Shown: positions 10,458 through 51,850 of the stretch, one piece after another
Position numbering within the stretch: position 1 is the stretch's first letter
How the letters are laid out: each line of letters starts with the position of its first letter
NCBI GenBank assembly: GCA_003586115.2
Contig: QVOM02000025.1
Location: 84,146,863 to 84,210,862 of the forward strand
Reading direction: 5' to 3'
DNA from: Salvator merianae
Lineage: Eukaryota; Chordata; Lepidosauria; Squamata; Teiidae
Length of the DNA: 64,000 bases
Notes under the pieces: model-generated
Told to the model about the DNA's origin: nothing
The model's database searches: none
Seen by the model: only the letters and a program-made list of their open reading frames with translations
Program-made: the position numbers and the translations under genes

Positions 10458-10469
10458 TACAATTTTGTT

Positions 10470-15820: not shown

Positions 15821-15828
15821 GGATAGAT

Positions 15829-19200: not shown

Positions 19201-19208
19201 AACTCTAC

Positions 19209-28842: not shown

Positions 28843-29190
28843 TAGTGAAGTGCAATGAAAAAAATCATTTTCCATTTGATTTCAAATGAAAATCTGCATT
28901 TTCGCTTCATCAGTGAATTTTGTTGTTGAAAAACACATTTTTCACATTCGTTTTTGCATTTTTTGCAATGTTTTCCTATTAAAAATGCCATTTTCATGGT
29001 TTAAACACAGTGAAAAATGTGAAAAATGCAAAACTTCAAAGAATTTCATTTTCACAAAAGAAGTAGGCTTTTTTGTTTTTGATTGAAAACAGTAAATGAG
29101 AAAAAAGTCATTTTCATTTTGATGCAAAAATTTGCAAAAATGAAGTTTCATATGAATTTTTGAATGCAAATCAAAATTTCCACATCCCTA
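28843..29190. mobile_element. Short hAT-like MITE (inverse orientation)
   Basis: The left end is degenerate (TAGTGAAGTGCA) and the right end is CACATCCCTA. The octamers AGGACACA and AGAGCACA flank it as an imperfect target duplication. The AT-rich interior matches the family consensus in reverse orientation, including GCCATTTTCATGGTTTAAAC. Confidence 0.8.
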
Positions 29191-29472
29191 AGAGCACAGC
29201 CTTAGTTCGATTTCTCTGGCTAAACACATTTTGTAAATGTGATCCCCCTAGATGTCTTTAAAATTGAACAATGCCTAAAGTGGGATCATACAATCCATAA
29301 ACACCAAACCTTGATCCTGCTGCATTTTTGTTTAATAGCTACTATTAGACACAGGCAAGAAATACCTGGCAGCATTACAGTGCCGTAACTGAACCTTGAG
29401 GGCACAGGGTGTGTCTGTTCAACCCTGCTCTTTCCAGCACAGTGGAAACACTGGATGAGTGCTGTGACTGCA

Positions 29473-29654
29473 TGGCCCTTTCTGCACTTGGCCTTATTGT
29501 GGATCATATCTCAGAATAGGGACCTGCCATCTGCATGCTAGTGCAGACTTTGGTAGGCCCTGGGCAAGACCTTTTATAGTTTGCACTAGCATGTGCATAA
29601 CAGGTCTCTATTCTGGGATATAATCCACAATAAGGCCAAGTGCAGAAAGGGCCA
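29473..29654. mobile_element. MITE with long terminal inverted repeats (182 bp)
   Basis: The outer 53 bases at each end are inverted repeats with about four mismatches. Each starts TGGCCCTTTCTGCACTTGGC and continues through CCTTATTGTGGAT, so the element can fold into a stem with a loop of about 75 bases. I could not find a convincing target duplication. It belongs loosely with the other 'GGCC...TGCACTT' ended elements. Confidence 0.75.
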
Positions 29655-30629
29655 AAGTGTCTGCACTTGTCCACTTACCATCCCACCTTAATCAGGCTGA
29701 AATGGTTCATGTTCAAACCTGTTCAAACCAAACTGTGTTATTTGGTCAGTGTGAACTCAAACCAAACCAACTGCTCCATTTGATTTTGATGGGGCTATTT
29801 GAATTTAACAGAACCATGGTGTGTTCAAACAGACTGGCTAAACATCCCATTTTAATTGGTCTTAGTTTGAATCAAAAGCCCTTTAAAAATGACCCTTTTT
29901 AAAAGTAAACTTTATGTAAATTTAAAAAATGAAGAGACACAAACCTGTTGGACGTTTATTTCAAATTGAACCACTGGGTTTATGTTTGTGGACATCTCTA
30001 GAGTACTGTAAAATGCAGGCAGGAGTAAGCCACCCTATAGATGGCTCCACACAGTTTACAAAGCAAAATATTATCACAAATAAACCAAGCATAACTGCAA
30101 GTAACAAGGCTTAGATCCAAAGCTCAGTGTCTAAAAATATTGATCATACAATGAATTCCTCCCAATGTAGCAATGTGCAATGTGGTGATTGTGGGAGTGC
30201 TGAATCCATTAAGTGCAGCAGGATGATAGGATTTCACTAGCTAAAAAACAATAATTTGGCTATTTAGGCAATCAAGCTTGTTAGAAAACTACTTCCATAA
30301 TTTTTCCTTTGCTTCGGTCTTCCATTTTTGACCATGACAATATTGCCACAGGCCAAATGATCAAGTTATTAAGAAAAAGTAATAGGAAGAGAAAAAAACA
30401 GGGCACAATTTGAAGAAATGAGCAATGATGCATGATGTGTTCAGGGCCATTAAGATAAGAACACTAGTAAATGTTTGCAACCTGTGGATTGGTTGAATCT
30501 TGTATTGGATATGAATGAAAAACAAAAAGCTGTCCATGTTTTCAATGCAAAGGTGAATCAAAGTGCTTGAGGAATGAAGGGCAGGCTTCCAATTGATGCC
30601 TCTCTCTCCCATCATGCCCCAGAGGTTCA
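29655..30629. other. GTTCAAA-rich stretch and unassigned DNA
   Basis: The part 29700-30000 is rich in GTTCAAAC, AACCAAAC and TTGAATC words and ends GTGGACATCTCTAG. A shorter similar stretch is at 10612-10745. It may be another diverged DNA-transposon family; the ends are not clear enough to call. Confidence 0.35.
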
Positions 30630-30970
30630 CTGTGAGCTTTGGCAAAATTCACATTTTCAATTTGCTATTGAAGCAAAAATCTGTATTTTTGCTTCATCAG
30701 TGAACTGCAATGTCAAAAAAGGAGGGATTCTCATTTGTTTCCGTGGTTTCCACAATGTTTTCCTCATTGAAAATGCCCTTTTCATGCATTAAACCCAGTG
30801 AAAATGCAAACATCACAACACATATCCCACTTTCATGAAGAAGGAGGCAGATTTGTTTCAATTGAACTCTGAACATGTGAAACAGAGCATTTTCATTTTG
30901 ATTTGAGTAGCTGCAAATGCAGAATATGTGATTGAATGTCCAAATGTGAAACAATTTTTGCACATCTCTT
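30630..30970. mobile_element. Degenerate short hAT-like MITE
   Basis: The interior words (TTGCTTCATCAGTGAA, AATGCCCTTTTCATG) and the right end TTTGCACATCTCT belong to the short hAT-like family. The left terminus is too decayed to place exactly and I see no clear target duplication, so this is probably one of the older copies. Confidence 0.6.
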
Positions 30971-31387
30971 CTTGGTAGATGGTAAGGGGTACTTTCTAAG
31001 GAGATTTGCTCCATGTTGCCTGTAGGTCTGAATTAGGCACAATAGTTTAGGGCTTGATGCCACCTACAGTTCCTCTGTACACATTAGGAGTCTTCGTTTA
31101 TCTTCTAGGTGGCCCCTCAGTTACTTTTCAGTTATCTTTTTTACAATAGACACATTTATCAGCCAAGAACCGGCTTTTGAATTTTGATTCACAGATGCTT
31201 CTGGAAGTATCTGAGGTTCACTTTCTGGGATATCACCATATGGCAAGCCCAACCAGAAACGCAGAAAATAAGCTGTCACTAAGAAGAAAGAGTCTCTTTC
31301 TAAAGATTAAAACAACCAGAGATCCCCATGATCACTTGCTTAAAAGTAAAAGGGGATGGCAGCCAGGTGATGAATGGATGGAAGGAA

Positions 31388-31571
31388 AGGAGGAAAGGAA
31401 GGAAGGAAGGAAGGAAGGAAGGAAGGAAGGAAGGAAGGAAGGAAGGAAGGAAGGAAGGAAGGAGGGGGTAGAGAGAGATTGAGAAGGAAAGAAGAAAAGA
31501 AGAAGGAAGGAAGGAAGGAAGGAAGGAAGGAAGGAAGGAAGGAAGGAAGGAAGGAAGGAAGGAAGGAAGGA
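31388..31571. repeat. (GGAA)n microsatellite pair at left palindrome edge
   Basis: Two GGAA tracts (31388-31463 and 31503-31571) are separated by GGGGGTAGAGAGAGATTGAG and GAAGAAAAG. The outer tract contains the left breakpoint of the palindrome. The LPSFLPSF frames are translations of this tract. Confidence 0.92.
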
Positions 31572-32351
31572 ACTATATAGATATTTTTCCTGAAAAGTAT
31601 CACTCTGTTTATAAATGACTTTCTTCTACATAAAGTCCTGGAATAATACTTTGCATCCAACTATTTCACCTATACCTGGTTTTCCAACTCAGATGAGTGA
31701 CTCAATTAAAATGTACACAGAATTAGAATCCACTGCATTGCGTTTTCTTTTATAGTATGTTTATAATCTGCCATAGGAAAAAAAATCTCAAAACAGATTC
31801 CAACACTTATTTTTAAAAAGGCAATGCAAAATATAGCATATTGAAATGACAACAAGACCAAAAGCAATACTGTGCACTACAAGGGAAGTTAGAATGTAAT
31901 TCAACATCTGATAGCACAATGTAATGAATTTGCAGTTTCAAGAAAACATAAGAAAAAATGAAATCAGCAAAACACAAAGGAATAGCTGTTCCTCATGTGT
32001 AGACAGATATTGCAGGGATTAGGCTCTGAGCTAGGAAGCCCAACTTTAACCTTGATCCTTGGCCCAGACAGATATTATATTTGGTTACCAGCACAAAAAG
32101 GTGGAGGCCAAAACCAGGAACAGCTGAAACAGGACAGGTGGACAATCAGAAAGTATATGCACTAAACATCTTCACATGACCATGATGTTGAGCATCATTA
32201 TACCAATCTGGCACTCATTCTGTTCCTGAGGGCAGAATCTGCTCCTAAGAGAACTCCTTTTTCAGATTTTTTTTTTTTTTTTTTAATAACTGTGCAAAGG
32301 CGAACACATGCCTGGTTCGCTCTTGTGGATTTCACTTGGAGGGCCAGTGCC

Positions 32352-32688
32352 TAGGGATGTGCAAATTTCGATTCATATTCAAAAATTCATTCAAAATTTT
32401 ATTTTCGCAGATTTTCACATTGAAACGAAAATGACATTTTTTGCATTTACAGTTTTTAAATGAAAAAGCTTATTCTTTCGCAAAAAATGAAATTAGTCGA
32501 ATTTTTGCAATTTTCACTCTGTTTAGACCATGAAAATGGCATTTTCAATGGGAAATGAATGCAAAAAATGCAAAAACGAATGTGAAAAATGCATTTTTTG
32601 GCAATGAAATTCACTGACAAAGCGAAAATACAGATTTTCATTTAAAAACAAATCAAAAATGATGTTTTTGTGTGTGTGCACATCCCTA
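32352..32688. mobile_element. Short hAT-like MITE in left palindrome arm
   Basis: The 337-bp element has perfect ends TAGGGATGTGCA/TGCACATCCCTA and flanking octamers CCAGTGCC (32344-32351) and CCAGTGAC (32689-32696). It retains several TTCG/CGAAAA sites, so it is among the younger short copies. Its mirror is at 49454-49790; both the element and its flanking octamers were copied. Confidence 0.9.
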
Positions 32689-35552
32689 CCAGTGACTGCT
32701 ATCCCAGATGGTCACTCAACCTACTCAGTGGCAAAATCAAGTCCAAGCAAATAACCTTCCTATCAAATAAGCCCAATCTTAGTTCAGCATACTGTGCAAT
32801 ATTTTATATCCAAGATCATACAGACAAAATCATAAGATGGCAGGAAAAAACTGATTATGCGAAATAGAAGTTCACATTAAGAACAGAAAAGAAAGCAGTG
32901 TCTGCACAAATGCAGAAAATCCATCCTTCAATTTCTAAATCTTTGCATAAAGACAACATCTAAACAGTGTTTTGGATTTACTGCCAGTTGAGGGATGCTG
33001 TGGATTGTCCACCTCTTGTGGAACTGGAGGAAGAAAACCATGGTTCCCCAAAGTGGATTTACGCGCTTAAATTTTTTGACTTTCTCCTTAATGAACTAAG
33101 TGTCTCTTGAAGGACAAGAGCCACACAGAGATGTTGCTTTTATCCAAAATCATGCTGGTCTCAGTCCACCTCGATACCTCTATGTGTAGTGAAAGTCGGG
33201 AGGGAGGTGAAGAGCAGGGAAACCTAAGGAACAAACAAATGGGTTTTATCCTTCCTTGGCAAGCAGACAATGTGTGCATAAATGCTTGTCACTTAATTTG
33301 ACATAGAGACCTGGTTACCATGTCACATTTTATTGGAAGCTTTTTGTCGATTTGAGAAGGTACGAGAGGAGGTTTGTAAAAATACAGAGAAAGAAGCTCT
33401 CATTACCTCCCTGCCGACAGCTTATGCATCTTTTACGGCACCTGTGCTTTAAATCAGTCTTGTATACTGGGTAGTTAATGGGGCTGCACAGCTCTTCTGA
33501 CAGGTAACACAGACAGTCAGGGAAACAAACCCAGAAATGGGGAGGGGGTGCTTTTTTGACTCTTACACTGTGTTAACTAGAGAAATGCCAGATCTCTTGG
33601 AAATAACTCTGCTAAATACCTTGTCAAGTGTACAGCTGCTGTTTTGAAAGGTTTTCCTGTCAACCTGGGATACTGCATTTGCATTTCCTGATGGCCTGTA
33701 AAGCAACAGTGTAAGCTGCTTGCAGGCAGTTATGTTTCCAGCTTTCACTTGGCATTTGGCAAAACAGGGCAATGGGTTGGGCAGACACCTTCAAAATATG
33801 CAATGCAACCCAGCAGTGCTTCAGAACTGTTCAGCATTTTGCACTGCAAGCAAGGTATCTTTTCCTACAGCTGGTTTTGTGAACATATGACTGGACTGAG
33901 TGTACTACTTGCTGATCCTGTCGTCTTGTCATTTAAACAGGTTCTGAAGAATTTCCACACCTTTATTTATTTATTTATTTTTAAAGGATGATCTAATAAG
34001 CTAGTAACTTTACAGTGATTATTTTGTTGGTATTCTAAGACTGTGTTCAGACATAACAAAAGGGGCGCTTCAGAAGCACCTCAGAGAGACAGTGTGTAGC
34101 CTTTGTGTTCCCCAATCCTTCTCTATTGCAGCTTTTCTAGCACAGAATGTTCAGGAGGGAAGTGAGAAGCAGGCTGGAATGTGAACAATCCCACCTCAAA
34201 GCCTTCTCTAAGCCACCTCAGACGCAGCCCCGAGATGCTTCCCCTCCCCCCCAGTGTCTGATCACAGCTGAAGTCTATGCTAAGAGCCACATGGAATCTT
34301 TATGGCACTGTGGTATGATCCTGATGGTGCAGGGGCTGCACATTTTTGTGTCCCTGTTGCACTAAGAGAGTGGTCCATGAGTGCAGGATGTGCTTGGTCC
34401 TGGACCCTGGAAGCACTCACTGTGCCAGAAGCACTTATTAGCGTGATATAACACCAGAATGACCACAAGAGCTTTCACAGAGCTTCCCATTGCTATCGTC
34501 TTCCCAAGTGCTGCGTGGACCTGCCATTTTAAATGCTGCCCCTTTTGCAGTGCAGAGGGAAATGGCCATTTCCTGTGCTATGCAAAAAGCCCCAGGATGG
34601 TAACATTGAACTGGGAAACTGAAGTTTTCCAGCTTTGATGTTCTGATTGTTGGGAGCAGTGTCAGTGTCCAGAAGGCATGCTGCCACTGGAGTAATCAAT
34701 GGAACAATGATCAGAAATGGCTGTAGCAGCTATCTCCCATTCCTGCACTGTCTCCAACATTGTGCAGAAGCTGTATATGCTCTGTTTTCTACAGCACGAT
34801 CAGAGTATCACATAGGGCATAATATCACAAATGGCCAATGTGGCCTGCAGACTGTACCTCTCCCTCTCCATGCCTCCCTGTGAGTCCCAATCCACCAAAT
34901 GCCAACAGTGTTATCAGTTGGGTCGTGCATCTTTTTTATGCTATGCAAGGTTTGATGAGATTATTCATCTGTTTTCCCCTAAGCTGATCCTGCAGAACAA
35001 ATACTTTCCCCACTTGTTCCCATTGTGTTATTTTGGATTCAGCTGCTTGGCAGTCATCAGGTGTTCCTCTAGACATTTAGATTCCAGGAAGTCGCAGAAT
35101 GATAAGCAGCAGACAAGAGCAGGCTTAGCATTAATACATCAAATGCAAAAGCTACGGTTTTATGGCCAGTCTTTCCCATGGGCTTCTCTTTTAAAATTAA
35201 CTGTGTCCATTGTCCATTTATGATTTCAGAGGTCATGCTAAGTCACAGATAAATGATTATTTTGTGGACCAAAACAAACCTTGCAATCTTCTAATGCTAT
35301 TCAGGAACTCTTCAAATTTGTGATTCCAAAAAGAGGCACACACTTCTTGATTTGCTTAATCACTGCTTATGAAAGCCCATTAACTTCTTTTAAATTCTAG
35401 GCTAACCTTAAGGAGGAAGTATGCCATAGCTATTTTTAATGGGGGATAGTTTCTGGTCCATATCAGAAGTTAGCTGGAGTAATAAATGGATCCAGAAGGC
35501 TTGTTCATTCAGGCTAAGAGCAGGAAATTCTTTGCTTTGCTATCTGACCATT

Positions 35553-36130
35553 GAGTATAAGAACATAAAAGGAGCCCTGCTACTATTCCTACTGGGGATA
35601 ACAGAAAATAATGTTGAGGGTGTCAATGTGTTATTGCAAAATATGATAACTGCAGCCAGAACTGTACATGCTCAGAAGTGGAAAGGGGGGAAATACCAAC
35701 ACTGGGCGATTAGTTAGTTAAAATGATGGAGCTTGCCAAGATGGACAAATTGATAAATCTTTTGAGAAGTAAGACAGTTGATAGGTTTTACAGAAACTGG
35801 AAACCCTTTACTGACTTTCTGCAAGATCTGGACAATGGACTTGTGATCGCTGGATTTGAAGAGTGATGAAAAAAGAAGACATTCAGTGGCGAAAAAGAAG
35901 AAAAGAGAATAGGACGGGGAGAAATATGGAGTATAGAAGAAACTGTCGAAGGAGGAAGTCGATAATATTGATATAAGAATGTAATGTAATATATCTGAAA
36001 TATAACAATAAAACATAAAAAAAAGAAAAAGGAGCCCTGCTGAATCAGGCTACAACACATCTAGTCCAGCATCCTAAAACACACAGTGGCCTACCAGTTG
36101 CTTCTGGGCAGTGCTCCACTACATAATATT
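35553..36130 (+). repeat. Reptilian 'GAGCCCTGCTGAATCAGGC' repeat, split by L1 (left arm)
   Basis: The repeat TATAAGAACATAAAAGGAGC continues, after the L1 insertion, as TGAATCAGGCTACAACACAT and CTAGTCCAGCATCC. This is an abundant dispersed repeat of squamate genomes; I do not assign a formal family name. A second copy is at 58225-58400, and the mirror is at 46012-46589. Confidence 0.7.
35582..36026 (+). mobile_element. L1 LINE 3' fragment nested in an older repeat (left arm)
   Basis: This 5'-truncated insertion of about 445 bp is flanked by a 15-bp target duplication, AAAAGGAGCCCTGCT, at 35567-35581 and 36027-36041. It ends in an A-rich tail after an AATAAA signal (AACAATAAAACATAAAAAAA). The 5' part translates as LGITENNVEGVNVLLQNMIT, AARTVHAQKWKGG, then, after frame changes, [13 protein letters not shown] and [11 protein letters not shown], the far C-terminus of vertebrate L1 ORF2. 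It inserted into the 'AAGAACATAA..GAGCCCTGCT' repeat before the palindrome formed. Confidence 0.83.
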
Positions 36131-37003
36131 CATGCTCTTGAAAAAGATTTGGTGGAAGGAATGACCAAGCCACGAAGGCTATATTTTTAGAAGATGCACT
36201 GGAGTGGTGTCGTCAGTCATCTTGGTTTTGCAACATCAGAAGTAAAGCTCACTTCACTATGGTTTAAGTTAAGCTGTAAATATTCCACATAATTCTTGAT
36301 CAGGTCAATTCAAAAGCAGCCCAGCTGCACAGAAGATGGAGTGGGGTAAGAGAAGGAAAGCACTTAGAGCCAAAAGTTTTAAGGGGAACCACTTTAGATG
36401 AAAGCATTTGTTTTCTAATTAATATTCTTGATAGATAAAATTGAAAGAGCCTGGAACATCTTGTATATTAATGTGTGTAGTGTGTTTCTTTAAAGAAGAA
36501 AAAGTGAGAATATCCCAGGAAGTTGGCCTTTTTTGGGCCAACATAGAAAGTTTCTAAAAAAAAAAAGGGGGGGGCTGTAAATTGCTTCCTGCCTGCCCAT
36601 TCCTCTACACAGAAGAAGAAGAAACAGCTGCATAGCAACCTTCCATTCCAAAAATTGTCTTGCAGTTAAGACACCTCTAGGGGGTCAACTTTCCAGGGCA
36701 ACCACCCACCCCAAGGGTTCTTCTGCAGTTAAAATGTCTCTTGGAATGAATGGAGAAGCCCCAAAGCCAGTTTAGGTGGGTCCATGTAAATCCATCATAC
36801 TTGGAGTGCTCAGATATTTGTATGACCTGGTCCTGGGCTTGGCAAGCTGGAGGACATATTTCAGTGTCCATATGGATATGGTCTCATTGGAAAGACAGAC
36901 ACTAGAAATAAAAACTGTGCCCACATTTTGATAGAAGTTTCAAACAGGCAGAAATCTGTACAATGTGGCAGTTTGAATGTTGAGACTTTAGTTCATCTAC
37001 ATG

Positions 37004-37519
37004 GGGCCTGTTCGCACTTAGTGAGAGGAACATTCCAGGACACTCAGTGGATTGGAGCATTCGCACCTGCAAACAGCCCCAGCTGACCTGAAACCTACTG
37101 AAGCCCACCTGATGCTCACCTGAAGCCTACTTGCTGTGGTCAACTAAATTGTAGTCTCCAAGCTGACTCATGTGATCAGGTGTGAATCAGGAAAGGTGTG
37201 TTTGCACCACTTTCTTGTGTGGAATGGCAGTGGGGCAGGGACTGTGTGGCTGCACAGGTACCGTCAAACAGTTCGGACCCAGGCTCAGACTTAGGGATCC
37301 AAGCCTCGCTGCCATTTCATACCCATGTCTGGACCCAGCTCCTCTAGGTCCACACCCAGCTCCCTAACTACTGCATTCCCATTCACACTGCTCCCCCTGC
37401 TGGTCATCTTGCAAACTGTTCCAGTGCTGACAAGTGGGAACACTCCTCACCATACCTGATCCTGTCCAGCCCAAACCCTGCTAATTAAAATGTTATACTG
37501 TTTAAGTGCAAACAGGCCC
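37004..37519. mobile_element. GGGCC-type MITE in left palindrome arm
   Basis: This 516-bp copy has ends GGGCCTGTTCGCACTTA and TTAAGTGCAAACAGGCCC and the 3-bp duplication ATG at 37001-37003 and 37520-37522. The mirror copy is at 44623-45138. It has no open frame of note. Confidence 0.82.
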
Positions 37520-39826
37520 ATGGCGATTTTTGCTGACCTCTTGTCAGCCAAGAGATGGGGCTAACAAATCATTGGGTGCAAGGTTCAGTGGTCTCCCATC
37601 CCCTCCTGAAAAGAGAGCAACCTTTTAGTACATTATATTTAAATACTCTAAAAATCACCTCTGATGAAGAGTCAGCATAGGGAAAATGTTTGGACCATCT
37701 TCTTGTCCCCAGACTGACTCCTTGGTCAGAATATTGGACTGTGTTCACAATCTGTAGCTGAGCCTCCTCTGTAGCCCTCACAGACAATCCAATAAGCTTG
37801 ACAGGGCAGAATGGGGCCTCAGATGTTTGCCCAAGGCCTCCCGCTCCACACAGATCGCAAAGTATATTAGTTATTTGAATGGAACTTTTAAGAGTTTGTG
37901 GGATGATCCCAAAATTTGGTATTTATTTTCATTTGGTCAAATTCTGTGAAACTCTGAACTTAGAGATATACACAAAATTCAACAGATTTTCAATTGTGAT
38001 TGAATTTTCAAAAAGCTCAATCTTTCTAACAATACAAATTCCATTCATAGAAGAAAATCTGTTTCAGCTCCATTCAAATACACTTTGATTAATTCTAACT
38101 CAGATTAAATGAACACTGCTGCATTCAAACGGCATTCAAATGTGTCCATGTGCATCCATATATTAAATGGGATTTTGGAATAGCAAATCTGTACAAATGA
38201 TATTTAAACAGATAAAACTGAATTAACTGAAAATTCAGGACTCAGATGTGAATTATTTTGGATAGGCTTCAACTCTAGCAAGTACACTGTCCTCAGAGAT
38301 ATCAACTGAATTTTCATAGCTGCATGCTGAAACGGGAAAGTGTGTTGGCATTCACTGCAACCTTGTGAATAAGTTCATCAAATGGCAGGGAATGACCAGA
38401 TGTCACTGAGCTTTTAAGCTTACAGAAACATTTGGAAATCTTGGCAACTCCTGTGGGCATCAGCAAAACAGAACAAAGCTTGTCATATTTGTGCTGCCGG
38501 TGTGTTTTAGAGTACGATCCCTAGCAGTATTAGCCAGGGTGATTACCCAAAATCATTGAGGGAATAAAGTCAGTGAAAACTACCATATAGGCATCCAGTC
38601 TCTGAAAGAAGAGGGAGATGCTTTAATGACTACTGAGAGAGCATGAATCTCCCCCCTCCTTTTTTAAAAAAATCCCTACATATGGCACAGTTATATCCCA
38701 AATCCCCGTATTTTATCATAATCCCTCCAATTATCCTGGTCTTCTTTCTCAATGTCTTCTTGAAGACGTTTTCTATTTATTTTTCTGCCTATTCGTAAGA
38801 GTGGTTGAGCCTATTTTCTCTATCTCTGGTTGCATCCAGGTGTATAAAGAGTTGGATGATGACCCAAGGGCAAGGATTCTACTCAGTGATAATACCCAAG
38901 GCATATATGTCATACATTTGAAGGCTGGTAAGCATGCCAGGAAGTGTCCTTTCCATAGAGAAGGAAGGAAAAACTCTCAGGGAACTTGCCAGTCTCTGTT
39001 GCCATAATAATGAACAGCCGTACAAGCAATCTATGTTAACCATGTTGCACATAGCAGAAAATGGCTAACTTCCAGAACCAATTCCCATATGTCCCAGAAC
39101 AGGTTTGTGTTGTGTTATTGGTGCCAGGGAACTTTTGTTCCCCAGCTTTGAAGTTTGTGAGGGGGTGAGGTGCATGGCATGAAGATACTTTGCACTCCAT
39201 ATTTGGAGCTGGAGAAAGTGCTGTGACCCAGAGGGCACTACAATACTCTATTGTGGACTAGCAGCCTTTATTATGAACATAGATTAAGGCTAAGCCTCTT
39301 TAGCTATAGATGAAAAATAAATTTCTTGCTTTTAGGCATTGCTTCAAGTCTTTTGTGCCTGATAACAGGGTTTCATTTGGCTTCCTGGTCTTGCTTGTTA
39401 TAGAATATAGCTTCCAGAAGTAAATCATTTTTTAACTGAGACATATTGATGAAGGACTTTCTTCTCTTCTTCTCTTATGTATTACCAGCAGGCTTGGTTC
39501 ACTGTCTTCACTACCCGCAGTGAAATTTGACTATGTATTGCATGGGCAATTAAATAGTAATGATTCAATGTAGGTTTGAAAGCAAGAGGTAATAAATTAG
39601 GAGTTTCAATATGCATCAGTAGGTGTTTGCTTCACTCCTAGTAGCTGATAATCTAGTCACTGACAGTTAAGGATGAGGATACCCACATTTATTCACTGAG
39701 TGTTGAGGAATCATGAAGGCCCAGTCAGCCATTGTTATGCCAACAACATGGCAGAGGAACAGCCCAGATAATCACTATGTTAAAGGTCCTGAAGGAAGGA
39801 GGCCCTTTCAAGTAATCAAAGTCAAA

Positions 39827-40318
39827 GACCTTTTCCACACAGTGTGAACTATCCCATACTGCACTGACCTGGGCAAGGTGGGCCAGGCTACCATTAGCCC
39901 TCACCAAGGGCTATCCACACTGCATGCTGCTTAGTCCACCCCAACTTCAGAGCCCTGGAACAAAAGTTTCCAGCCTTTGAAGTTGTCAGCTGGAACCTTT
40001 TTTTTGGACTGAGCACTCAGGAATGGTGCATTACTGGCATCACTTCTGGGTGCCCAGCTGAAACAGGATCAGTCTTGGTATATCAGGCAACAATAGTGTG
40101 CTGTCTGCATGCTATCCATGAACTAGTATGTTGAAGTAGTCCACTTGTGATCTACTTTGAAAATTTCTACTGGTGGAGTAGAATACAGGGCCATTTTGGT
40201 GTCATTTCCCATACTACAGCTACATCCAGTGCAGAAGGAGCATACTAGTGGCAGGTGAGGCCTCTGCTAGACTGCTCCAGTGCAATCTACCATGTCCTGT
40301 GGACTGGTTCATAGGCCC
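39827..40318. mobile_element. GGGCC-type MITE relative in left arm
   Basis: The segment starts near GACCTTTTCCACACAGTG. Its interior type (AGAGCCCTGGAACAAAAG, TTTCCAGCCTTTGAAG, CATCCAGTGCAGAAGG) is also seen at 3950-4468 and 57132-57648. It ends near CATAGGCCC. The mirror is at 41824-42315. Confidence 0.55.
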
Positions 40319-41036
40319 TGTGCAGATAACCTAAGAGTACTGCAGAGGTGCAACTCAGGATACCAGTGTAAATGTGCCACAGAGACCAAAACTCTGTTGT
40401 AGAAAACCATGTTATACAGGGGATTACAGTATGTGTATTTACTTTTCATGACTACTTCAAGAGTTTCTGCCCCAGATATACACATAGACCCAACTCAGTT
40501 GTGTCTACCTTCTGCCCAAATGACCAAAAGGGACAGCTTCCTGCAAGAGTGGAGGAATGAACCCTGAAGCCACACCACGATGCCCAAGTCAGCATGAGAA
40601 CAAGGTGTGCATCACATTTTGCCTATGCTAGCTGAACCTGTATTTGGAGTTTCACGCTGTATGAAGTGTACGTGGCCCAACATTCAGGTCCATTTCTGCA
40701 TTCTAGCCAGATCTCAACCTGGGAATTCATCTTCTCTAAGTGAGAAGGAGGAGGAGGTGAGGAGGACCGTATCAGTCATTTGGCCTTAGCATTTCATCTC
40801 CCCCTGTGACTGAGGTTTGCAGATTCCCCACATACACTTCTATCCAGGCCCTGTGTGATTGAAGTTTGAGCTTTATCCAATAGGATTTATCAGTCTTATT
40901 TAAAGTCCAAAGTGTAGCACTTGTTACATGTCTGGGTGTTTCCATGTGTGACCGTCAGTACTTCATTTTCTCATATCTAAACTACATCATTTTTCTCAGT
41001 GAGGTTGGCAGAAACAGAAGTCAATCTTCCTGTTAG

Positions 41037-41105
41037 CTCACATTTGCATCTTGGTCTGGCGCCTTCTAGGTGTGGATGCTTTTATCTTTCATCTTCTCCC
41101 TCCCT
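41037..41105. other. Palindrome spacer (69 bp)
   Basis: This is the non-symmetric centre between the arms. The last paired bases are g41036 and c41106. The right part of the spacer is pyrimidine-rich (ATCTTTCATCTTCTCCCTCC), and I see no internal hairpin. A unique spacer means the structure is not a perfect head-to-head join, which argues mildly against a simple fold-back read artefact. Confidence 0.95.
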
Positions 41106-41823
41106 CTAACAGGAAGATTGACTTCTGTTTCTGCCAACCTCACTGAGAAAAATGATGTAGTTTAGATATGAGAAAATGAAGTACTGACGGTCACACATGG
41201 AAACACCCAGACATGTAACAAGTGCTACACTTTGGACTTTAAATAAGACTGATAAATCCTATTGGATAAAGCTCAAACTTCAATCACACAGGGCCTGGAT
41301 AGAAGTGTATGTGGGGAATCTGCAAACCTCAGTCACAGGGGGAGATGAAATGCTAAGGCCAAATGACTGATACGGTCCTCCTCACCTCCTCCTCCTTCTC
41401 ACTTAGAGAAGATGAATTCCCAGGTTGAGATCTGGCTAGAATGCAGAAATGGACCTGAATGTTGGGCCACGTACACTTCATACAGCGTGAAACTCCAAAT
41501 ACAGGTTCAGCTAGCATAGGCAAAATGTGATGCACACCTTGTTCTCATGCTGACTTGGGCATCGTGGTGTGGCTTCAGGGTTCATTCCTCCACTCTTGCA
41601 GGAAGCTGTCCCTTTTGGTCATTTGGGCAGAAGGTAGACACAACTGAGTTGGGTCTATGTGTATATCTGGGGCAGAAACTCTTGAAGTAGTCATGAAAAG
41701 TAAATACACATACTGTAATCCCCTGTATAACATGGTTTTCTACAACAGAGTTTTGGTCTCTGTGGCACATTTACACTGGTATCCTGAGTTGCACCTCTGC
41801 AGTACTCTTAGGTTATCTGCACA

Positions 41824-42315
41824 GGGCCTATGAACCAGTCCACAGGACATGGTAGATTGCACTGGAGCAGTCTAGCAGAGGCCTCACCTGCCACTAGTAT
41901 GCTCCTTCTGCACTGGATGTAGCTGTAGTATGGGAAATGACACCAAAATGGCCCTGTATTCTACTCCACCAGTAGAAATTTTCAAAGTAGATCACAAGTG
42001 GACTACTTCAACATACTAGTTCATGGATAGCATGCAGACAGCACACTATTGTTGCCTGATATACCAAGACTGATCCTGTTTCAGCTGGGCACCCAGAAGT
42101 GATGCCAGTAATGCACCATTCCTGAGTGCTCAGTCCAAAAAAAAGGTTCCAGCTGACAACTTCAAAGGCTGGAAACTTTTGTTCCAGGGCTCTGAAGTTG
42201 GGGTGGACTAAGCAGCATGCAGTGTGGATAGCCCTTGGTGAGGGCTAATGGTAGCCTGGCCCACCTTGCCCAGGTCAGTGCAGTATGGGATAGTTCACAC
42301 TGTGTGGAAAAGGTC
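41824..42315. mobile_element. GGGCC-type MITE relative in right arm (mirror copy)
   Basis: This is the mirror of 39827-40318, copied with the palindrome arm. Confidence 0.55.
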
Positions 42316-44622
42316 TTTGACTTTGATTACTTGAAAGGGCCTCCTTCCTTCAGGACCTTTAACATAGTGATTATCTGGGCTGTTCCTCTGCCATGTTGTT
42401 GGCATAACAATGGCTGACTGGGCCTTCATGATTCCTCAACACTCAGTGAATAAATGTGGGTATCCTCATCCTTAACTGTCAGTGACTAGATTATCAGCTA
42501 CTAGGAGTGAAGCAAACACCTACTGATGCATATTGAAACTCCTAATTTATTACCTCTTGCTTTCAAACCTACATTGAATCATTACTATTTAATTGCCCAT
42601 GCAATACATAGTCAAATTTCACTGCGGGTAGTGAAGACAGTGAACCAAGCCTGCTGGTAATACATAAGAGAAGAAGAGAAGAAAGTCCTTCATCAATATG
42701 TCTCAGTTAAAAAATGATTTACTTCTGGAAGCTATATTCTATAACAAGCAAGACCAGGAAGCCAAATGAAACCCTGTTATCAGGCACAAAAGACTTGAAG
42801 CAATGCCTAAAAGCAAGAAATTTATTTTTCATCTATAGCTAAAGAGGCTTAGCCTTAATCTATGTTCATAATAAAGGCTGCTAGTCCACAATAGAGTATT
42901 GTAGTGCCCTCTGGGTCACAGCACTTTCTCCAGCTCCAAATATGGAGTGCAAAGTATCTTCATGCCATGCACCTCACCCCCTCACAAACTTCAAAGCTGG
43001 GGAACAAAAGTTCCCTGGCACCAATAACACAACACAAACCTGTTCTGGGACATATGGGAATTGGTTCTGGAAGTTAGCCATTTTCTGCTATGTGCAACAT
43101 GGTTAACATAGATTGCTTGTACGGCTGTTCATTATTATGGCAACAGAGACTGGCAAGTTCCCTGAGAGTTTTTCCTTCCTTCTCTATGGAAAGGACACTT
43201 TATGGCATGCTTACCAGCCTTCAAATGTATGACATATATGCCTTGGGTATTATCACTGAGTAGAATCCTTGCCCTTGGGTCATCATCCAACTCTTTATAC
43301 ACCTGGATGCAACCAGAGATAGAGAAAATAGGCTCAACCACTCTTACGAATAGGCAGAAAAATAAATAGAAAACGTCTTCAAGAAGACATTGAGAAAGAA
43401 GACCAGGATAATTGGAGGGATTATGATAAAATACGGGGATTTGGGATATAACTGTGCCATATGTAGGGATTTTTTTAAAAAAGGAGGGGGGAGATTCATG
43501 CTCTCTCAGTAGTCATTAAAGCATCTCCCTCTTCTTTCAGAGACTGGATGCCTATATGGTAGTTTTCACTGACTTTATTCCCTCAATGATTTTGGGTAAT
43601 CACCCTGGCTAATACTGCTAGGGATCGTACTCTAAAACACACCGGCAGCACAAATATGACAAGCTTTGTTCTGTTTTGCTGATGCCCACAGGAGTTGCCA
43701 AGATTTCCAAATGTTTCTGTAAGCTTAAAAGCTCAGTGACATCTGGTCATTCCCTGCCATTTGATGAACTTATTCACAAGGTTGCAGTGAATGCCAACAC
43801 ACTTTCCCGTTTCAGCATGCAGCTATGAAAATTCAGTTGATATCTCTGAGGACAGTGTACTTGCTAGAGTTGAAGCCTATCCAAAATAATTCACATCTGA
43901 GTCCTGAATTTTCAGTTAATTCAGTTTTATCTGTTTAAATATCATTTGTACAGATTTGCTATTCCAAAATCCCATTTAATATATGGATGCACATGGACAC
44001 ATTTGAATGCCGTTTGAATGCAGCAGTGTTCATTTAATCTGAGTTAGAATTAATCAAAGTGTATTTGAATGGAGCTGAAACAGATTTTCTTCTATGAATG
44101 GAATTTGTATTGTTAGAAAGATTGAGCTTTTTGAAAATTCAATCACAATTGAAAATCTGTTGAATTTTGTGTATATCTCTAAGTTCAGAGTTTCACAGAA
44201 TTTGACCAAATGAAAATAAATACCAAATTTTGGGATCATCCCACAAACTCTTAAAAGTTCCATTCAAATAACTAATATACTTTGCGATCTGTGTGGAGCG
44301 GGAGGCCTTGGGCAAACATCTGAGGCCCCATTCTGCCCTGTCAAGCTTATTGGATTGTCTGTGAGGGCTACAGAGGAGGCTCAGCTACAGATTGTGAACA
44401 CAGTCCAATATTCTGACCAAGGAGTCAGTCTGGGGACAAGAAGATGGTCCAAACATTTTCCCTATGCTGACTCTTCATCAGAGGTGATTTTTAGAGTATT
44501 TAAATATAATGTACTAAAAGGTTGCTCTCTTTTCAGGAGGGGATGGGAGACCACTGAACCTTGCACCCAATGATTTGTTAGCCCCATCTCTTGGCTGACA
44601 AGAGGTCAGCAAAAATCGCCAT

Positions 44623-45138
44623 GGGCCTGTTTGCACTTAAACAGTATAACATTTTAATTAGCAGGGTTTGGGCTGGACAGGATCAGGTATGGTGAGGAGT
44701 GTTCCCACTTGTCAGCACTGGAACAGTTTGCAAGATGACCAGCAGGGGGAGCAGTGTGAATGGGAATGCAGTAGTTAGGGAGCTGGGTGTGGACCTAGAG
44801 GAGCTGGGTCCAGACATGGGTATGAAATGGCAGCGAGGCTTGGATCCCTAAGTCTGAGCCTGGGTCCGAACTGTTTGACGGTACCTGTGCAGCCACACAG
44901 TCCCTGCCCCACTGCCATTCCACACAAGAAAGTGGTGCAAACACACCTTTCCTGATTCACACCTGATCACATGAGTCAGCTTGGAGACTACAATTTAGTT
45001 GACCACAGCAAGTAGGCTTCAGGTGAGCATCAGGTGGGCTTCAGTAGGTTTCAGGTCAGCTGGGGCTGTTTGCAGGTGCGAATGCTCCAATCCACTGAGT
45101 GTCCTGGAATGTTCCTCTCACTAAGTGCGAACAGGCCC
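44623..45138. mobile_element. GGGCC-type MITE in right palindrome arm (mirror copy)
   Basis: This is the reverse complement of 37004-37519 with the same flanking ATG duplication (read as CAT on this strand). It was copied with the arm. Confidence 0.82.
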
Positions 45139-46011
45139 CATGTAGATGAACTAAAGTCTCAACATTCAAACTGCCACATTGTACAGATTTCTGCCTGTTT
45201 GAAACTTCTATCAAAATGTGGGCACAGTTTTTATTTCTAGTGTCTGTCTTTCCAATGAGACCATATCCATATGGACACTGAAATATGTCCTCCAGCTTGC
45301 CAAGCCCAGGACCAGGTCATACAAATATCTGAGCACTCCAAGTATGATGGATTTACATGGACCCACCTAAACTGGCTTTGGGGCTTCTCCATTCATTCCA
45401 AGAGACATTTTAACTGCAGAAGAACCCTTGGGGTGGGTGGTTGCCCTGGAAAGTTGACCCCCTAGAGGTGTCTTAACTGCAAGACAATTTTTGGAATGGA
45501 AGGTTGCTATGCAGCTGTTTCTTCTTCTTCTGTGTAGAGGAATGGGCAGGCAGGAAGCAATTTACAGCCCCCCCCTTTTTTTTTTTAGAAACTTTCTATG
45601 TTGGCCCAAAAAAGGCCAACTTCCTGGGATATTCTCACTTTTTCTTCTTTAAAGAAACACACTACACACATTAATATACAAGATGTTCCAGGCTCTTTCA
45701 ATTTTATCTATCAAGAATATTAATTAGAAAACAAATGCTTTCATCTAAAGTGGTTCCCCTTAAAACTTTTGGCTCTAAGTGCTTTCCTTCTCTTACCCCA
45801 CTCCATCTTCTGTGCAGCTGGGCTGCTTTTGAATTGACCTGATCAAGAATTATGTGGAATATTTACAGCTTAACTTAAACCATAGTGAAGTGAGCTTTAC
45901 TTCTGATGTTGCAAAACCAAGATGACTGACGACACCACTCCAGTGCATCTTCTAAAAATATAGCCTTCGTGGCTTGGTCATTCCTTCCACCAAATCTTTT
46001 TCAAGAGCATG

Positions 46012-46589
46012 AATATTATGTAGTGGAGCACTGCCCAGAAGCAACTGGTAGGCCACTGTGTGTTTTAGGATGCTGGACTAGATGTGTTGTAGCCTGATTC
46101 AGCAGGGCTCCTTTTTCTTTTTTTTATGTTTTATTGTTATATTTCAGATATATTACATTACATTCTTATATCAATATTATCGACTTCCTCCTTCGACAGT
46201 TTCTTCTATACTCCATATTTCTCCCCGTCCTATTCTCTTTTCTTCTTTTTCGCCACTGAATGTCTTCTTTTTTCATCACTCTTCAAATCCAGCGATCACA
46301 AGTCCATTGTCCAGATCTTGCAGAAAGTCAGTAAAGGGTTTCCAGTTTCTGTAAAACCTATCAACTGTCTTACTTCTCAAAAGATTTATCAATTTGTCCA
46401 TCTTGGCAAGCTCCATCATTTTAACTAACTAATCGCCCAGTGTTGGTATTTCCCCCCTTTCCACTTCTGAGCATGTACAGTTCTGGCTGCAGTTATCATA
46501 TTTTGCAATAACACATTGACACCCTCAACATTATTTTCTGTTATCCCCAGTAGGAATAGTAGCAGGGCTCCTTTTATGTTCTTATACTC
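46012..46589 (-). repeat. Reptilian 'GAGCCCTGCT' repeat, split by L1 (right arm mirror copy)
   Basis: This is the mirror of 35553-36130. Confidence 0.7.
46116..46560 (-). mobile_element. L1 LINE 3' fragment (right arm mirror copy)
   Basis: This is the mirror of 35582-36026, including the target duplications and A-tail. The apparent ORFs of 90-100 codons on the plus strand here (and their left-arm mirrors) are antisense shadows of the L1 fragment. Confidence 0.83.
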
Positions 46590-49453
46590 AATGGTCAGAT
46601 AGCAAAGCAAAGAATTTCCTGCTCTTAGCCTGAATGAACAAGCCTTCTGGATCCATTTATTACTCCAGCTAACTTCTGATATGGACCAGAAACTATCCCC
46701 CATTAAAAATAGCTATGGCATACTTCCTCCTTAAGGTTAGCCTAGAATTTAAAAGAAGTTAATGGGCTTTCATAAGCAGTGATTAAGCAAATCAAGAAGT
46801 GTGTGCCTCTTTTTGGAATCACAAATTTGAAGAGTTCCTGAATAGCATTAGAAGATTGCAAGGTTTGTTTTGGTCCACAAAATAATCATTTATCTGTGAC
46901 TTAGCATGACCTCTGAAATCATAAATGGACAATGGACACAGTTAATTTTAAAAGAGAAGCCCATGGGAAAGACTGGCCATAAAACCGTAGCTTTTGCATT
47001 TGATGTATTAATGCTAAGCCTGCTCTTGTCTGCTGCTTATCATTCTGCGACTTCCTGGAATCTAAATGTCTAGAGGAACACCTGATGACTGCCAAGCAGC
47101 TGAATCCAAAATAACACAATGGGAACAAGTGGGGAAAGTATTTGTTCTGCAGGATCAGCTTAGGGGAAAACAGATGAATAATCTCATCAAACCTTGCATA
47201 GCATAAAAAAGATGCACGACCCAACTGATAACACTGTTGGCATTTGGTGGATTGGGACTCACAGGGAGGCATGGAGAGGGAGAGGTACAGTCTGCAGGCC
47301 ACATTGGCCATTTGTGATATTATGCCCTATGTGATACTCTGATCGTGCTGTAGAAAACAGAGCATATACAGCTTCTGCACAATGTTGGAGACAGTGCAGG
47401 AATGGGAGATAGCTGCTACAGCCATTTCTGATCATTGTTCCATTGATTACTCCAGTGGCAGCATGCCTTCTGGACACTGACACTGCTCCCAACAATCAGA
47501 ACATCAAAGCTGGAAAACTTCAGTTTCCCAGTTCAATGTTACCATCCTGGGGCTTTTTGCATAGCACAGGAAATGGCCATTTCCCTCTGCACTGCAAAAG
47601 GGGCAGCATTTAAAATGGCAGGTCCACGCAGCACTTGGGAAGACGATAGCAATGGGAAGCTCTGTGAAAGCTCTTGTGGTCATTCTGGTGTTATATCACG
47701 CTAATAAGTGCTTCTGGCACAGTGAGTGCTTCCAGGGTCCAGGACCAAGCACATCCTGCACTCATGGACCACTCTCTTAGTGAAACAGGGACACAAAAAT
47801 GGGCAGCCCCTGCACCATCAGGATCATACCACAGTGCCATAAAGATTCCATGTGGCTCTTAGCATAGACTTCAGCTGTGATCAGACACTGGGGGGGAGGG
47901 GAAGCATCTCAGGGCTGCGTCTGAGGTGGCTTAGAGAAGGCTTTGAGGTGGGATTGTTCACATTCCAGCCTGCTTCTCACTTCCCTCCTGAACATTCTGT
48001 GCTAGAAAAGCTGCAATAGAGAAGGATTGGGAAACACAAAGGCCACACACTGTCTCTCTGAGGTGCTTCTGAAGCGCCCCTTTTGTTATGTCTGAACACA
48101 GTCTTAGAATACCAACAAAATAATCACTGTAAAGTTACTAGCTTATTAGATCATCCTTTAAAAATAAATAAATAAATAAAGGTGTGGAAATTCTTCAGAA
48201 CCTGTTTAAATGACAAGATGACAGGATCAGCAAGTAGTACACTCAGTCCAGTCATATGTTCACAAAACCAGCTGTAGGAAAAGATACCTTGCTTGCAGTG
48301 CAAAATGCTGAACAGTTCTGAAGCACTGCTGGGTTGCATTGCATATTTTGAAGGTGTCTGCCCAACCCATTGCCCTGTTTTGCCAAATGCCAAGTGAAAG
48401 CTGGAAACATAACTGCCTGCAAGCAGCTTACACTGTTGCTTTACAGGCCATCAGGAAATGCAAATGCAGTATCCCAGGTTGACAGGAAAACCTTTCAAAA
48501 CAGCAGCTGTACACTTGACAAGGTATTTAGCAGAGTTATTTCCAAGAGATCTGGCATTTCTCTAGTTAACACAGTGTAAGAGTCAGAAAAGCACCCCCTC
48601 CCCATTTCTGGGTTTGTTTCCCTGACTGTCTGTGTTACCTGTCAGAAGAGCTGTGCAGCCCCATTAACTACCCAGTATACAAGACTGATTTAAAGCACAG
48701 GTGCCGTAAAAGATGCATAAGCTGTCGGCAGGGAGGTAATGAGAGCTTCTTTCTCTGTATTTTTACAAACCTCCTCTCGTACCTTCTCAAATCGACAAAA
48801 AGCTTCCAATAAAATGTGACATGGTAACCAGGTCTCTATGTCAAATTAAGTGACAAGCATTTATGCACACATTGTCTGCTTGCCAAGGAAGGATAAAACC
48901 CATTTGTTTGTTCCTTAGGTTTCCCTGCTCTTCACCTCCCTCCCGACTTTCACTACACATAGAGGTATCGAGGTGGACTGAGACCAGCATGATTTTGGAT
49001 AAAAGCAACATCTCTGTGTGGCTCTTGTCCTTCAAGAGACACTTAGTTCATTAAGGAGAAAGTCAAAAAATCTAAGCGCGTAAATCCACTTTGGGGAACC
49101 ATGGTTTTCTTCCTCCAGTTCCACAAGAGGTGGACAATCCACAGCATCCCTCAACTGGCAGTAAATCCAAAACACTGTTTAGATGTTGTCTTTATGCAAA
49201 GATTTAGAAATTGAAGGATGGATTTTCTGCATTTGTGCAGACACTGCTTTCTTTTCTGTTCTTAATGTGAACTTCTATTTCGCATAATCAGTTTTTTCCT
49301 GCCATCTTATGATTTTGTCTGTATGATCTTGGATATAAAATATTGCACAGTATGCTGAACTAAGATTGGGCTTATTTGATAGGAAGGTTATTTGCTTGGA
49401 CTTGATTTTGCCACTGAGTAGGTTGAGTGACCATCTGGGATAGCAGTCACTGG

Positions 49454-49790
49454 TAGGGATGTGCACACACACAAAAACATCATTTTTGATTTGTTTTTAA
49501 ATGAAAATCTGTATTTTCGCTTTGTCAGTGAATTTCATTGCCAAAAAATGCATTTTTCACATTCGTTTTTGCATTTTTTGCATTCATTTCCCATTGAAAA
49601 TGCCATTTTCATGGTCTAAACAGAGTGAAAATTGCAAAAATTCGACTAATTTCATTTTTTGCGAAAGAATAAGCTTTTTCATTTAAAAACTGTAAATGCA
49701 AAAAATGTCATTTTCGTTTCAATGTGAAAATCTGCGAAAATAAAATTTTGAATGAATTTTTGAATATGAATCGAAATTTGCACATCCCTA
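49454..49790. mobile_element. Short hAT-like MITE in right palindrome arm (mirror copy)
   Basis: This is the reverse complement of 32352-32688 with the same flanking octamers. It was copied by the inverted duplication rather than inserted independently. Confidence 0.9.
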
Positions 49791-50570
49791 GGCACTGGCC
49801 CTCCAAGTGAAATCCACAAGAGCGAACCAGGCATGTGTTCGCCTTTGCACAGTTATTAAAAAAAAAAAAAAAAAATCTGAAAAAGGAGTTCTCTTAGGAG
49901 CAGATTCTGCCCTCAGGAACAGAATGAGTGCCAGATTGGTATAATGATGCTCAACATCATGGTCATGTGAAGATGTTTAGTGCATATACTTTCTGATTGT
50001 CCACCTGTCCTGTTTCAGCTGTTCCTGGTTTTGGCCTCCACCTTTTTGTGCTGGTAACCAAATATAATATCTGTCTGGGCCAAGGATCAAGGTTAAAGTT
50101 GGGCTTCCTAGCTCAGAGCCTAATCCCTGCAATATCTGTCTACACATGAGGAACAGCTATTCCTTTGTGTTTTGCTGATTTCATTTTTTCTTATGTTTTC
50201 TTGAAACTGCAAATTCATTACATTGTGCTATCAGATGTTGAATTACATTCTAACTTCCCTTGTAGTGCACAGTATTGCTTTTGGTCTTGTTGTCATTTCA
50301 ATATGCTATATTTTGCATTGCCTTTTTAAAAATAAGTGTTGGAATCTGTTTTGAGATTTTTTTTCCTATGGCAGATTATAAACATACTATAAAAGAAAAC
50401 GCAATGCAGTGGATTCTAATTCTGTGTACATTTTAATTGAGTCACTCATCTGAGTTGGAAAACCAGGTATAGGTGAAATAGTTGGATGCAAAGTATTATT
50501 CCAGGACTTTATGTAGAAGAAAGTCATTTATAAACAGAGTGATACTTTTCAGGAAAAATATCTATATAGT

Positions 50571-50701
50571 TCCTTCCTTCCTTCCTTCCTTCCTTCCTTC
50601 CTTCCTTCCTTCCTTCCTTCCTTCCTTCCTTCCTTCTTCTTTTCTTCTTTCCTTCTCAATCTCTCTCTACCCCCTCCTTCCTTCCTTTTTCTCTTCCTTT
50701 T

Positions 50702-50757
<56 letters not shown>

Positions 50758-50905
50758 TTTCTTTCTTTCTTTCTTTCTTTCATCTCTCTCTCTCTTCCTT
50801 CCTCTCTGCCTTTCCATCCCTTTCTCCTATCATCTCTTCCTCTTCCTCTTCCTCTTCCTCTTCCTCTTCCTCTTCCTCTTCCTCTCCCTGCCTTCCTTCC
50901 TCTCT
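50571..50905. repeat. Compound polypyrimidine tract at right palindrome edge
   Basis: (TTCC)n at 50571-50636, the mirrored bridge, then (CTTT)n at about 50702-50780 and (TCTTCC)n at about 50835-50886. It totals about 330 bp of almost pure pyrimidine on the plus strand. The breakpoint of the arm lies at about 50687. The 153-codon plus-strand frame is a translation of this tract. Confidence 0.9.
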
Positions 50906-51443
50906 TAGGGGAAAAAAATGAAGACATTTCAGGTAGGCTCTGAATCAATGAAATGAAAGTGACTAGGAAAATGGTAAGGAAATACTCTCAACTTAAACCT
51001 TCACATTGACACCTCTGACATTCCATGACACAGTAAAACAAATAAAATAAAAAGTTTTCAAGTTGTGTGAGACTGCAGGCATCTTCTCCCACTTTTATAC
51101 TTCTAAACAAATGTCAGAGTCTTCTTCATGCTTTTCTGCTTTCCTCTTCTTTACAAATTGCCTGTCCTGATGACTTTGCTTGTAATCCCTCTGAGACATT
51201 TCTGTTTCTGGTGTTCTGCTTTGGGACTGTTGCCTTTGCATTGTTCAGTTCTAATGAATTCAGCCTCCTTTCTGCCTAACTGCATTTCTTCCAGAGGAGG
51301 GGGGGTTTCCAGGAAGTACCTCAAAAATAACCTTCACTGGCACTGTATTTGACATGTTTGCTAGGGGGTGGCATTGAAGGTTAAGATCCTCACAGGTATC
51401 AAAAATACAAGAAAGGTCCAGAGTTTCTGATTTACTTAGCAAA

Positions 51444-51850
51444 GGGCCTTTCCACACTGTGTGGTCCTAGTATTTACCTTCAGCAGGCTACCAGCATTCA
51501 CCATGTGAATGCTGGTAGCTTTACTGGATCCTGACTATGGCAGTGTCTGGGAAATGTCTGGCTACTGCTGTTGTGACTGCCAGTGCTACACAGTGCACAG
51601 GTGCTATCAGGCAGTCAAACAGATCTGGCTGATGTGTGGGGTATGGAAGTCATGGCAAGTGTGAATGAACTCTACCAGGAGCTGGATACCAGCACCTGAT
51701 AAAGTTGTGGAGCACTAATTAATGCTGCACAGCTAGGAGCAATTGGGAGAGGCTGTAGCCGGCTCCTGGCTGCTTGGGCCTCTGCAAAGTGCAGAAACAT
51801 TTTGCTAGCAAGTGTCCCTGATGCTTCTAGTACAAAGTGTGAACAGGCCT
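51444..51850. mobile_element. GGGCC-type MITE
   Basis: The copy runs from GGGCCTTTCCACACTGTG to AAAGTGTGAACAGGCCT. The interior has ACTATGGCAGTGTCTGGGAA, GTTGTGGAGCAC and CTAGCAAGTGTCCCTGATGC. It resembles 59044-59349 and 10978-11304. Confidence 0.72.

What the first reader, a model, noticed from the sequence alone, without database searches (positions are those of the whole stretch)
31451..50687. A 19.2-kb palindrome with 9.58-kb arms and a 69-bp spacer
The two arms are near-identical reverse complements, collinear at a constant coordinate sum of 82142. I noticed about ten substitutions and one 4-bp microsatellite difference, which puts arm identity near 99.9%. Structures of this size and identity are known from sex-chromosome ampliconic regions, where arms are kept alike by gene conversion, and from recent inverted duplications. 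No gene family explains it here.
Basis: partly seen in the sequence, partly recalled or inferred. Interest (0 to 1): 0.93.

Follow-up and report, generated by a model that had tools for sequence, protein, structure and literature searches.

The report
Probable recent 19-kb inverted duplication
A 9.6-kb stretch of DNA with no recognisable gene sits next to an almost identical mirror copy of itself, most likely a recent copying accident during DNA replication, though an assembly mistake cannot be ruled out without the raw reads.

Summary
Arms 31451-41036 and 41106-50687 align over 9582 positions with 10 mismatched bases and one 4-bp microsatellite gap (99.90%) around a 69-bp spacer. In the 2.05-Gb assembly a 1-kb mid-arm query has two full-length matches, both here (40 of 161 candidates scored); queries from the centre and both outer flanks each have one. 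No other comparable inverted pair was found in 264 kb. 139 open frames gave no credible Pfam match. Arm GC is not raised, against long-term GC-biased conversion as in sex-chromosome palindromes. Nine difference events are clustered (8 of 9 in 1.29 kb, P about 5e-5), against uniform mutation since duplication. The outer flanks differ and both edges lie in polypurine microsatellites, so one fold-back read alone cannot make it. Best reading: a young inverted duplication made by replication template switching, with patchy arm-to-arm conversion or copying from another haplotype. An assembly false duplication stays open (about 0.3). New member of a known kind; notable for the very short spacer.

The parts
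31451..41036 (+). Left palindrome arm, 9586 bp
41037..41105 (.). Central spacer, 69 bp; a 141-base query over it has one full-length match in the genome; right third pyrimidine-rich
41106..50687 (-). Right palindrome arm, 9582 bp, reverse complement of the left
31376..31572 (+). GGAA-type polypurine microsatellite region containing the left outer edge and the 4-bp arm difference
50570..50889 (+). TTCC / CTTT / CTCTTC polypyrimidine microsatellites containing the right outer edge
33070..34359 (.). Tract holding 8 of the 9 difference events between the arms (mirror: 47783-49072)
38940..38941 (.). GG versus TA dinucleotide difference (mirror: 43201-43202)
32352..32688 (+). Short MITE (TAGGGATGTGCA...CACATCCCTA) inside the arm, present in both arms (mirror 49454-49790), so older than the duplication; flanking 8-mers CCAGTGCC / CCAGTGAC match 7 of 8
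   Evidence: hAT-like assignment inferred from the 8-bp target duplications of the longer copies

Best explanation
A young, interstitial inverted duplication with no recognisable gene, in a vertebrate-like (by recall of its repeats, reptile) genome. Most likely a replication fork or broken end switched templates near a short inverted repeat at what is now the centre, copied about 9.6 kb backwards, then switched again inside a polypurine/polypyrimidine microsatellite and rejoined the original strand, leaving 69 bp as the loop. Since then the arms have either been homogenised in patches by arm-to-arm conversion, or the inverted copy was templated from a different haplotype; either would explain the clustered differences. 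Shown: structure, copy number of the tested segments, differing flanks, clustering, absence of a Pfam match in the frames scanned. Inferred: mechanism, youth, conversion, and that the assembly is right.
For: A 1-kb mid-arm query has two full-length matches, both here (40 of 161 candidates scored); centre and both outer flanks have one full-length match each. The window has no N and 264 kb around it hold one single-base N. Left and right flanks differ abruptly, both inside polypurine microsatellites, as a second template switch would give. The arms carry the same transposon copies and align without any arm-specific insertion. Arm GC is 0.414 against 0.420 (sd 0.011) in 113 overlapping flanking windows, unlike the 46.3 vs 41.2% reported for conserved human X palindromes (PMC8981503, passages). 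Clustering P about 5.5e-5 under uniform placement. Two of the 8 single substitutions are CpG transitions, which hints at real mutation rather than read error. Fold-back and microhomology junctions are established for inverted duplications (PMC3907307, passages; PMC10766186, abstract, introduction and part 1 of 3 of results).
Against: No reads, no second individual, no relative: the junctions are unverified. Interrupted palindromes with short spacers are described as unstable and rare in natural genomes (PMC10766186). The sequenced human fold-back spacers are 766-70,466 bp (PMC3907307), far above 69 bp. Switch-point microhomology cannot be seen without an ancestral sequence. Words shared by spacer and flanks are weak and do not lie at the edges: right flank 11 bp at 51080 (24 of 300 shuffles and 6 of 300 random windows reach it), left flank 10 bp at 31102 (11 of 300 and 18 of 300). 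Arm divergence of 0.1% with clustering would also fit two alleles wrongly joined. Only about a tenth of the arm was tested for further copies; a second arm query did not complete.
Confidence: 0.62

Rival explanations
1. Assembly false duplication: the two alleles of one 9.6-kb locus, or a fold-back read, were joined in mirror orientation, with a second misjoin at the microsatellite.
For: A 0.1% difference with clustering looks like heterozygosity. Edges in microsatellites are where contigs often break (inference). A single-base N lies 30 kb to the right of the window, beside what looks by eye like inverted repeats, and may mark an unresolved join. Fold-back reads are a known artefact: about 0.55-0.6% of Oxford Nanopore genomic reads, virtually none in the PacBio HiFi data examined (PMC12870357, Results section); whole-genome amplification makes palindromic chimeras too (PMC6218980, abstract and one section).
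Against: A fold-back of one molecule gives the same outer flank on both sides; here the flanks differ and each has one full-length match, so two independent errors are needed (inference). No N at the centre or either edge. No other contig gave a full-length match to the mid-arm query.
Confidence: 0.3
2. A long-lived sex-chromosome palindrome maintained by arm-to-arm gene conversion.
For: Arm identity 99.90% and patchy differences; conversion tracts of kilobases are inferred for human P6 (PMC3723533, passages).
Against: Arm GC not raised; no credible Pfam match; no comparable inverted pair in 264 kb; 69-bp spacer. The GC argument is not absolute: P4, P5, P7 and P8 of the human Y show no significant GC difference from their spacers (PMC3723533).
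Confidence: 0.05
3. An unusual inverted-repeat mobile element.
For: Two long mirror arms; inverted-repeat transposons occur nearby.
Against: No other full-length match to the mid-arm query among the 40 of 161 candidates scored, no target-site duplication or terminal motif seen at the edges (by eye), no transposase among the frames scanned.
Confidence: 0.02

Closest known systems
Interstitial inverted duplications / foldback inversions made by template switching (MMBIR, fold-back and ODIRA models)
   Same: Adjacent inverted copy, short unique spacer, edges of the microsatellite or microhomology type
   Different: The 69-bp spacer is below the 766-70,466 bp of sequenced human fold-back cases (PMC3907307); two full-length matches of the tested segment, not the three of an intact ODIRA triplication (PMC10766186); the arms are intact, which the authors of PMC10766186 did not find unambiguously in their limited human survey
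Sex-chromosome ampliconic palindromes (human Y P1-P8, primate X palindromes)
   Same: Arm identity near 99.9%; arm length close to the shortest Y palindrome arm (8.7 kb, PMC6218980)
   Different: No gene match, no GC rise, tiny spacer, isolated in 264 kb; chromosome type unknown
Yeast fragile site FS2 (two inverted 6-kb Ty elements, 280-bp spacer; PMC7999016, passages)
   Same: Kilobase-scale inverted arms with a short spacer
   Different: FS2 arms are transposons; the tested part of these arms is otherwise single-copy
Fold-back chimeric long reads and amplification palindromes (PMC12870357, PMC6218980)
   Same: Near-perfect mirror with a short centre
   Different: Different outer flanks on the two sides, each with one full-length match

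Membership tests
Young inverted duplication | Two adjacent inverted copies of otherwise single-copy sequence | tested here: met
   for the arms; for copy number (1001 of 9586 arm bases queried, 40 of 161 candidates scored); for centre and flanks
Young inverted duplication | Confirmed in the genome by spanning reads or in other individuals | not testable with these tools
   no reads here; one search states that the genome has no relatives held
Fold-back inverted duplication (PMC3907307) | Unique spacer with inverted microhomology at its boundary in the ancestral sequence | not testable with these tools
   spacer present; ancestral sequence not available
Fold-back inverted duplication (PMC3907307) | Spacer in the 766-70,466 bp range of the sequenced cases | tested here: not met
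   69 bp
ODIRA triplication (PMC10766186) | Three copies, the middle one inverted | tested here: not met
   two full-length matches of the mid-arm query
Sex-chromosome ampliconic palindrome | Arm identity above 99% | tested here: met
   0.99896
Sex-chromosome ampliconic palindrome | Gene family in the arms | tested here: inconclusive
   139 of 219 listed open frames of 64 aa or more (low-complexity ones and the right arm left out of the 219), 17 of the 139 in the left arm, scanned without a credible Pfam match; short exons and non-coding genes could be missed
Sex-chromosome ampliconic palindrome | Raised GC in the arms from biased conversion | tested here: not met
   not universal in human Y palindromes
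Sex-chromosome ampliconic palindrome | Location on a sex chromosome | not testable with these tools
   scaffold C682, 94.6 Mb, unnamed
Fold-back read artefact | Same locus flanking both outer edges | tested here: not met
   different flanks, each with one full-length match
Inverted-repeat mobile element | Several copies with defined ends and target-site duplications | tested here: not met
   (by eye)

The most novel reading that the evidence does not exclude
A real, germline-transmitted, intact interrupted palindrome with 9.6-kb arms and only a 69-bp spacer has persisted in a vertebrate, with no sign of an ampliconic region around it, and undergoes patchy arm-to-arm gene conversion; it would be a natural single-locus model for how a germline tolerates and homogenises a structure that is described as unstable wherever it has been introduced.
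Probability: 0.25. Interest if true: 0.6.

Novelty: new member of a known kind. Interest (0 to 1): 0.36.

Why it matters
If real, it is a fresh, undecayed product of inverted duplication with both junctions readable, before central deletion has widened the spacer, and it would allow a test of palindrome stability and arm-to-arm conversion in a place with no recognisable genes. If an artefact, it is a useful example of a false inverted duplication that carries no gap and has different flanks.

Tried and rejected
Transposon origin of the arms: rejected (no other full-length match to the tested kilobase, no terminal motif seen). Second palindrome at 11421/18118: rejected; it is two separate insertions of one ~1.08-kb element in opposite orientation, each with its own 8-bp target duplication (read from the ends printed). 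Sequencing adapter in the spacer: none seen by eye against recalled adapters; no tool test was made. Words shared by spacer and flanks: weak, not at the edges. RNA genes: no tRNA in the window, no Rfam match at gathering score in the window or in 100 kb of the 200 kb fetched beside it. Coding match: two Pfam names at E 0.0067 and 0.0075 among 139 frames, taken as chance. Of the 150 frames printed, 11 were not passed on (one with a long GGAA tail and the 10 shortest). Two flank frames that looked by eye like retrotransposon 3' ends gave no reverse-transcriptase match: one matched a membrane-protein domain at E 1.3e-6 but below its curated cut-off and a desaturase at 0.0078, the other nothing; the first had only three solved-structure matches at E 0.21 (the second was not searched there). 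The reptile assignment therefore rests on recall of repeat motifs. Paper searches for squamate, lizard, snake or reptile palindromes (20 of 103, 15 of 136 and 10 of 11 papers listed, titles and starts of abstracts seen) showed no title on a squamate palindrome; in the rattlesnake W paper PMC9447483 the word palindromes occurs once, in a reference (passages). A search for the repeat end as a word found nothing relevant.

Full report
What is there. The window lies at G000:C682:84146863-84210862, on a 94.6-Mb scaffold of an unnamed 2.05-Gb assembly in 1816 contigs. CpG observed/expected is 0.21 and GC 0.41, as in a methylated vertebrate genome; the interspersed repeats resemble reptile (squamate) ones from recall, not from a test, and two frames that I took for retrotransposon ends gave no such Pfam match. 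Arms 31451-41036 and 41106-50687 align over 9582 positions with 10 mismatched bases and 4 gap columns. The spacer is 69 bp.

Edges. Outwards the arms end inside microsatellites: on the left in a GGAA-type region from 31376, on the right in a TTCC, CTTT and CTCTTC region up to 50889. Beyond these, no collinear similarity between left and right was found. A query from each flank (30950-31380; 50900-51500) has one full-length match in the genome, in place. For the left flank it is the only match; for the right flank 39 further matches are listed, none longer than 63 bp, with 40 of 586 candidates scored. So the mirror stops at both ends in polypurine tracts and continues into two different sequences. 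A fold-back of a single molecule would not give that by itself (inference).

Copy number. A 1001-base mid-arm query (38300-39300, about a tenth of the arm) has two full-length matches, the two arms; the other 38 listed matches are partial and 68-98% identical, with 40 of 161 candidates scored. The central 141 bases match once in full, plus two half-matches expected from the mirror. A second arm query (33000-34400) did not complete. No separate contig with the tested segment appeared.

Surroundings. In 264 kb of contiguous sequence, self-comparison gave 257 repeat pairs (40 longest printed); after the palindrome the longest are about 1.08 kb and belong to one transposon family. There is one single-base N in that stretch, 30 kb right of the window. 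Pfam found no credible match in 139 open frames, 17 of them in the left arm. Rfam found nothing at gathering scores in the window and in 100 kb beside it, ARAGORN no tRNA in the window.

Differences between the arms. Nine events: eight single substitutions within 1290 bp and one dinucleotide change 4.6 kb further in. Uniform placement gives 8 of 9 within that span in 5.5e-5 of 200,000 trials; the span was chosen after seeing the data, so the figure is indicative. Mismatch density is 0.62% inside the tract and 0.024% outside. All eight substitutions swap a strong for a weak base, four in each direction. Two lie in a CpG in the left arm and read as the decayed form in the right arm. Uniform mutation since duplication does not fit. 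Patchy gene conversion, copying from another haplotype, or two alleles wrongly joined all do.

Age and conversion. Both arms carry the same transposon copies, and 9464 bp align without an indel. Arm GC is 0.414 against a mean of 0.420 (sd 0.011) in 113 overlapping flanking windows of the same length; 83 of 113 are as high or higher. Arm CpG observed/expected is 0.148, and 18 of 113 windows are as low or lower. Conserved primate X palindromes show 45-46% GC in arms against 41% beside them (PMC8981503, passages), though several human Y palindromes show no significant difference from their spacers (PMC3723533, passages). The structure therefore looks young rather than long maintained.

Mechanism. 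Two template switches are the simplest account: one near the centre, as a rule at a short inverted repeat, and one in a polypurine tract. In sequenced human fold-back duplications 13 of 21 junctions have 2-8 bp of inverted microhomology, and spacers are 766-70,466 bp (PMC3907307, passages). The 69-bp spacer here is shorter and closer to the closely spaced inverted repeats of the ODIRA model (PMC10766186, abstract, introduction and part 1 of 3 of results), but that model starts from three copies and two full-length matches are found. The switch points cannot be tested without the ancestral sequence. The best words shared by spacer and flanks are 11 bp (right; 24 of 300 shuffles, 6 of 300 random windows) and 10 bp (left; 11 and 18 of 300), neither at an edge.

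Artefact. The alternative is two alleles, or a fold-back read, joined in the assembly with a second misjoin at the microsatellite. Fold-back reads were about 0.55-0.6% of the Oxford Nanopore genomic reads examined and virtually absent in PacBio HiFi (PMC12870357, Results section). The sequencing technology of this assembly is unknown. I put this at 0.3. Only reads can decide.

Verdict. An exact observation of a feature of the assembly; most likely a young inverted duplication; not shown to be sex-linked, ampliconic or functional.

Noticed in passing
window 11421-12502 and 18118-19200; further copies L022:1946-3016 and L023:2278-3411: A ~1.08-kb hAT-like element without a coding match (TAGGGATGTGCACGAAA...TTTCGTGCACATCCCTA ends); the two window copies have 8-bp target duplications CTGTCTTG and GTAGAGTT; matching stretches between copies are 94-99% alike, so fairly recently active.
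   Followed up: partly
window 908-1263, 15514-15822, 24454-24774, 28858-29190, 32352-32688 (and its mirror), 56580-56916: A ~340-bp MITE family, 69-81% alike; the copy at 32352 has TAGGGATGTGCA...CACATCCCTA ends like the 1.08-kb element.
   Followed up: partly
L017:14 (G000:C682:84240876): A single-base N with what looks by eye like inverted-repeat sequence on both sides, the only N in 264 kb; possibly an unresolved assembly join.
   Followed up: partly
window 13496-13754 and 16490-16871: Two blocks of direct repeats, 87-88% identical, lying between the two 1.08-kb elements.
   Followed up: no
window 29473-29654: A 182-bp stretch that is its own reverse complement at 82%, perhaps another small inverted-repeat element.
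   Followed up: no
window 20001-40000 boundary aside: G000:C682:84146863-84166862 (window 1-20000) and G000:C682:84286863-84306862: CpG observed/expected is 0.345 and 0.382 in these two 20-kb blocks, against 0.12-0.21 in the other 12 blocks of the 264 kb (the last of them only 4 kb); CpG-rich young transposons may explain it.
   Followed up: no
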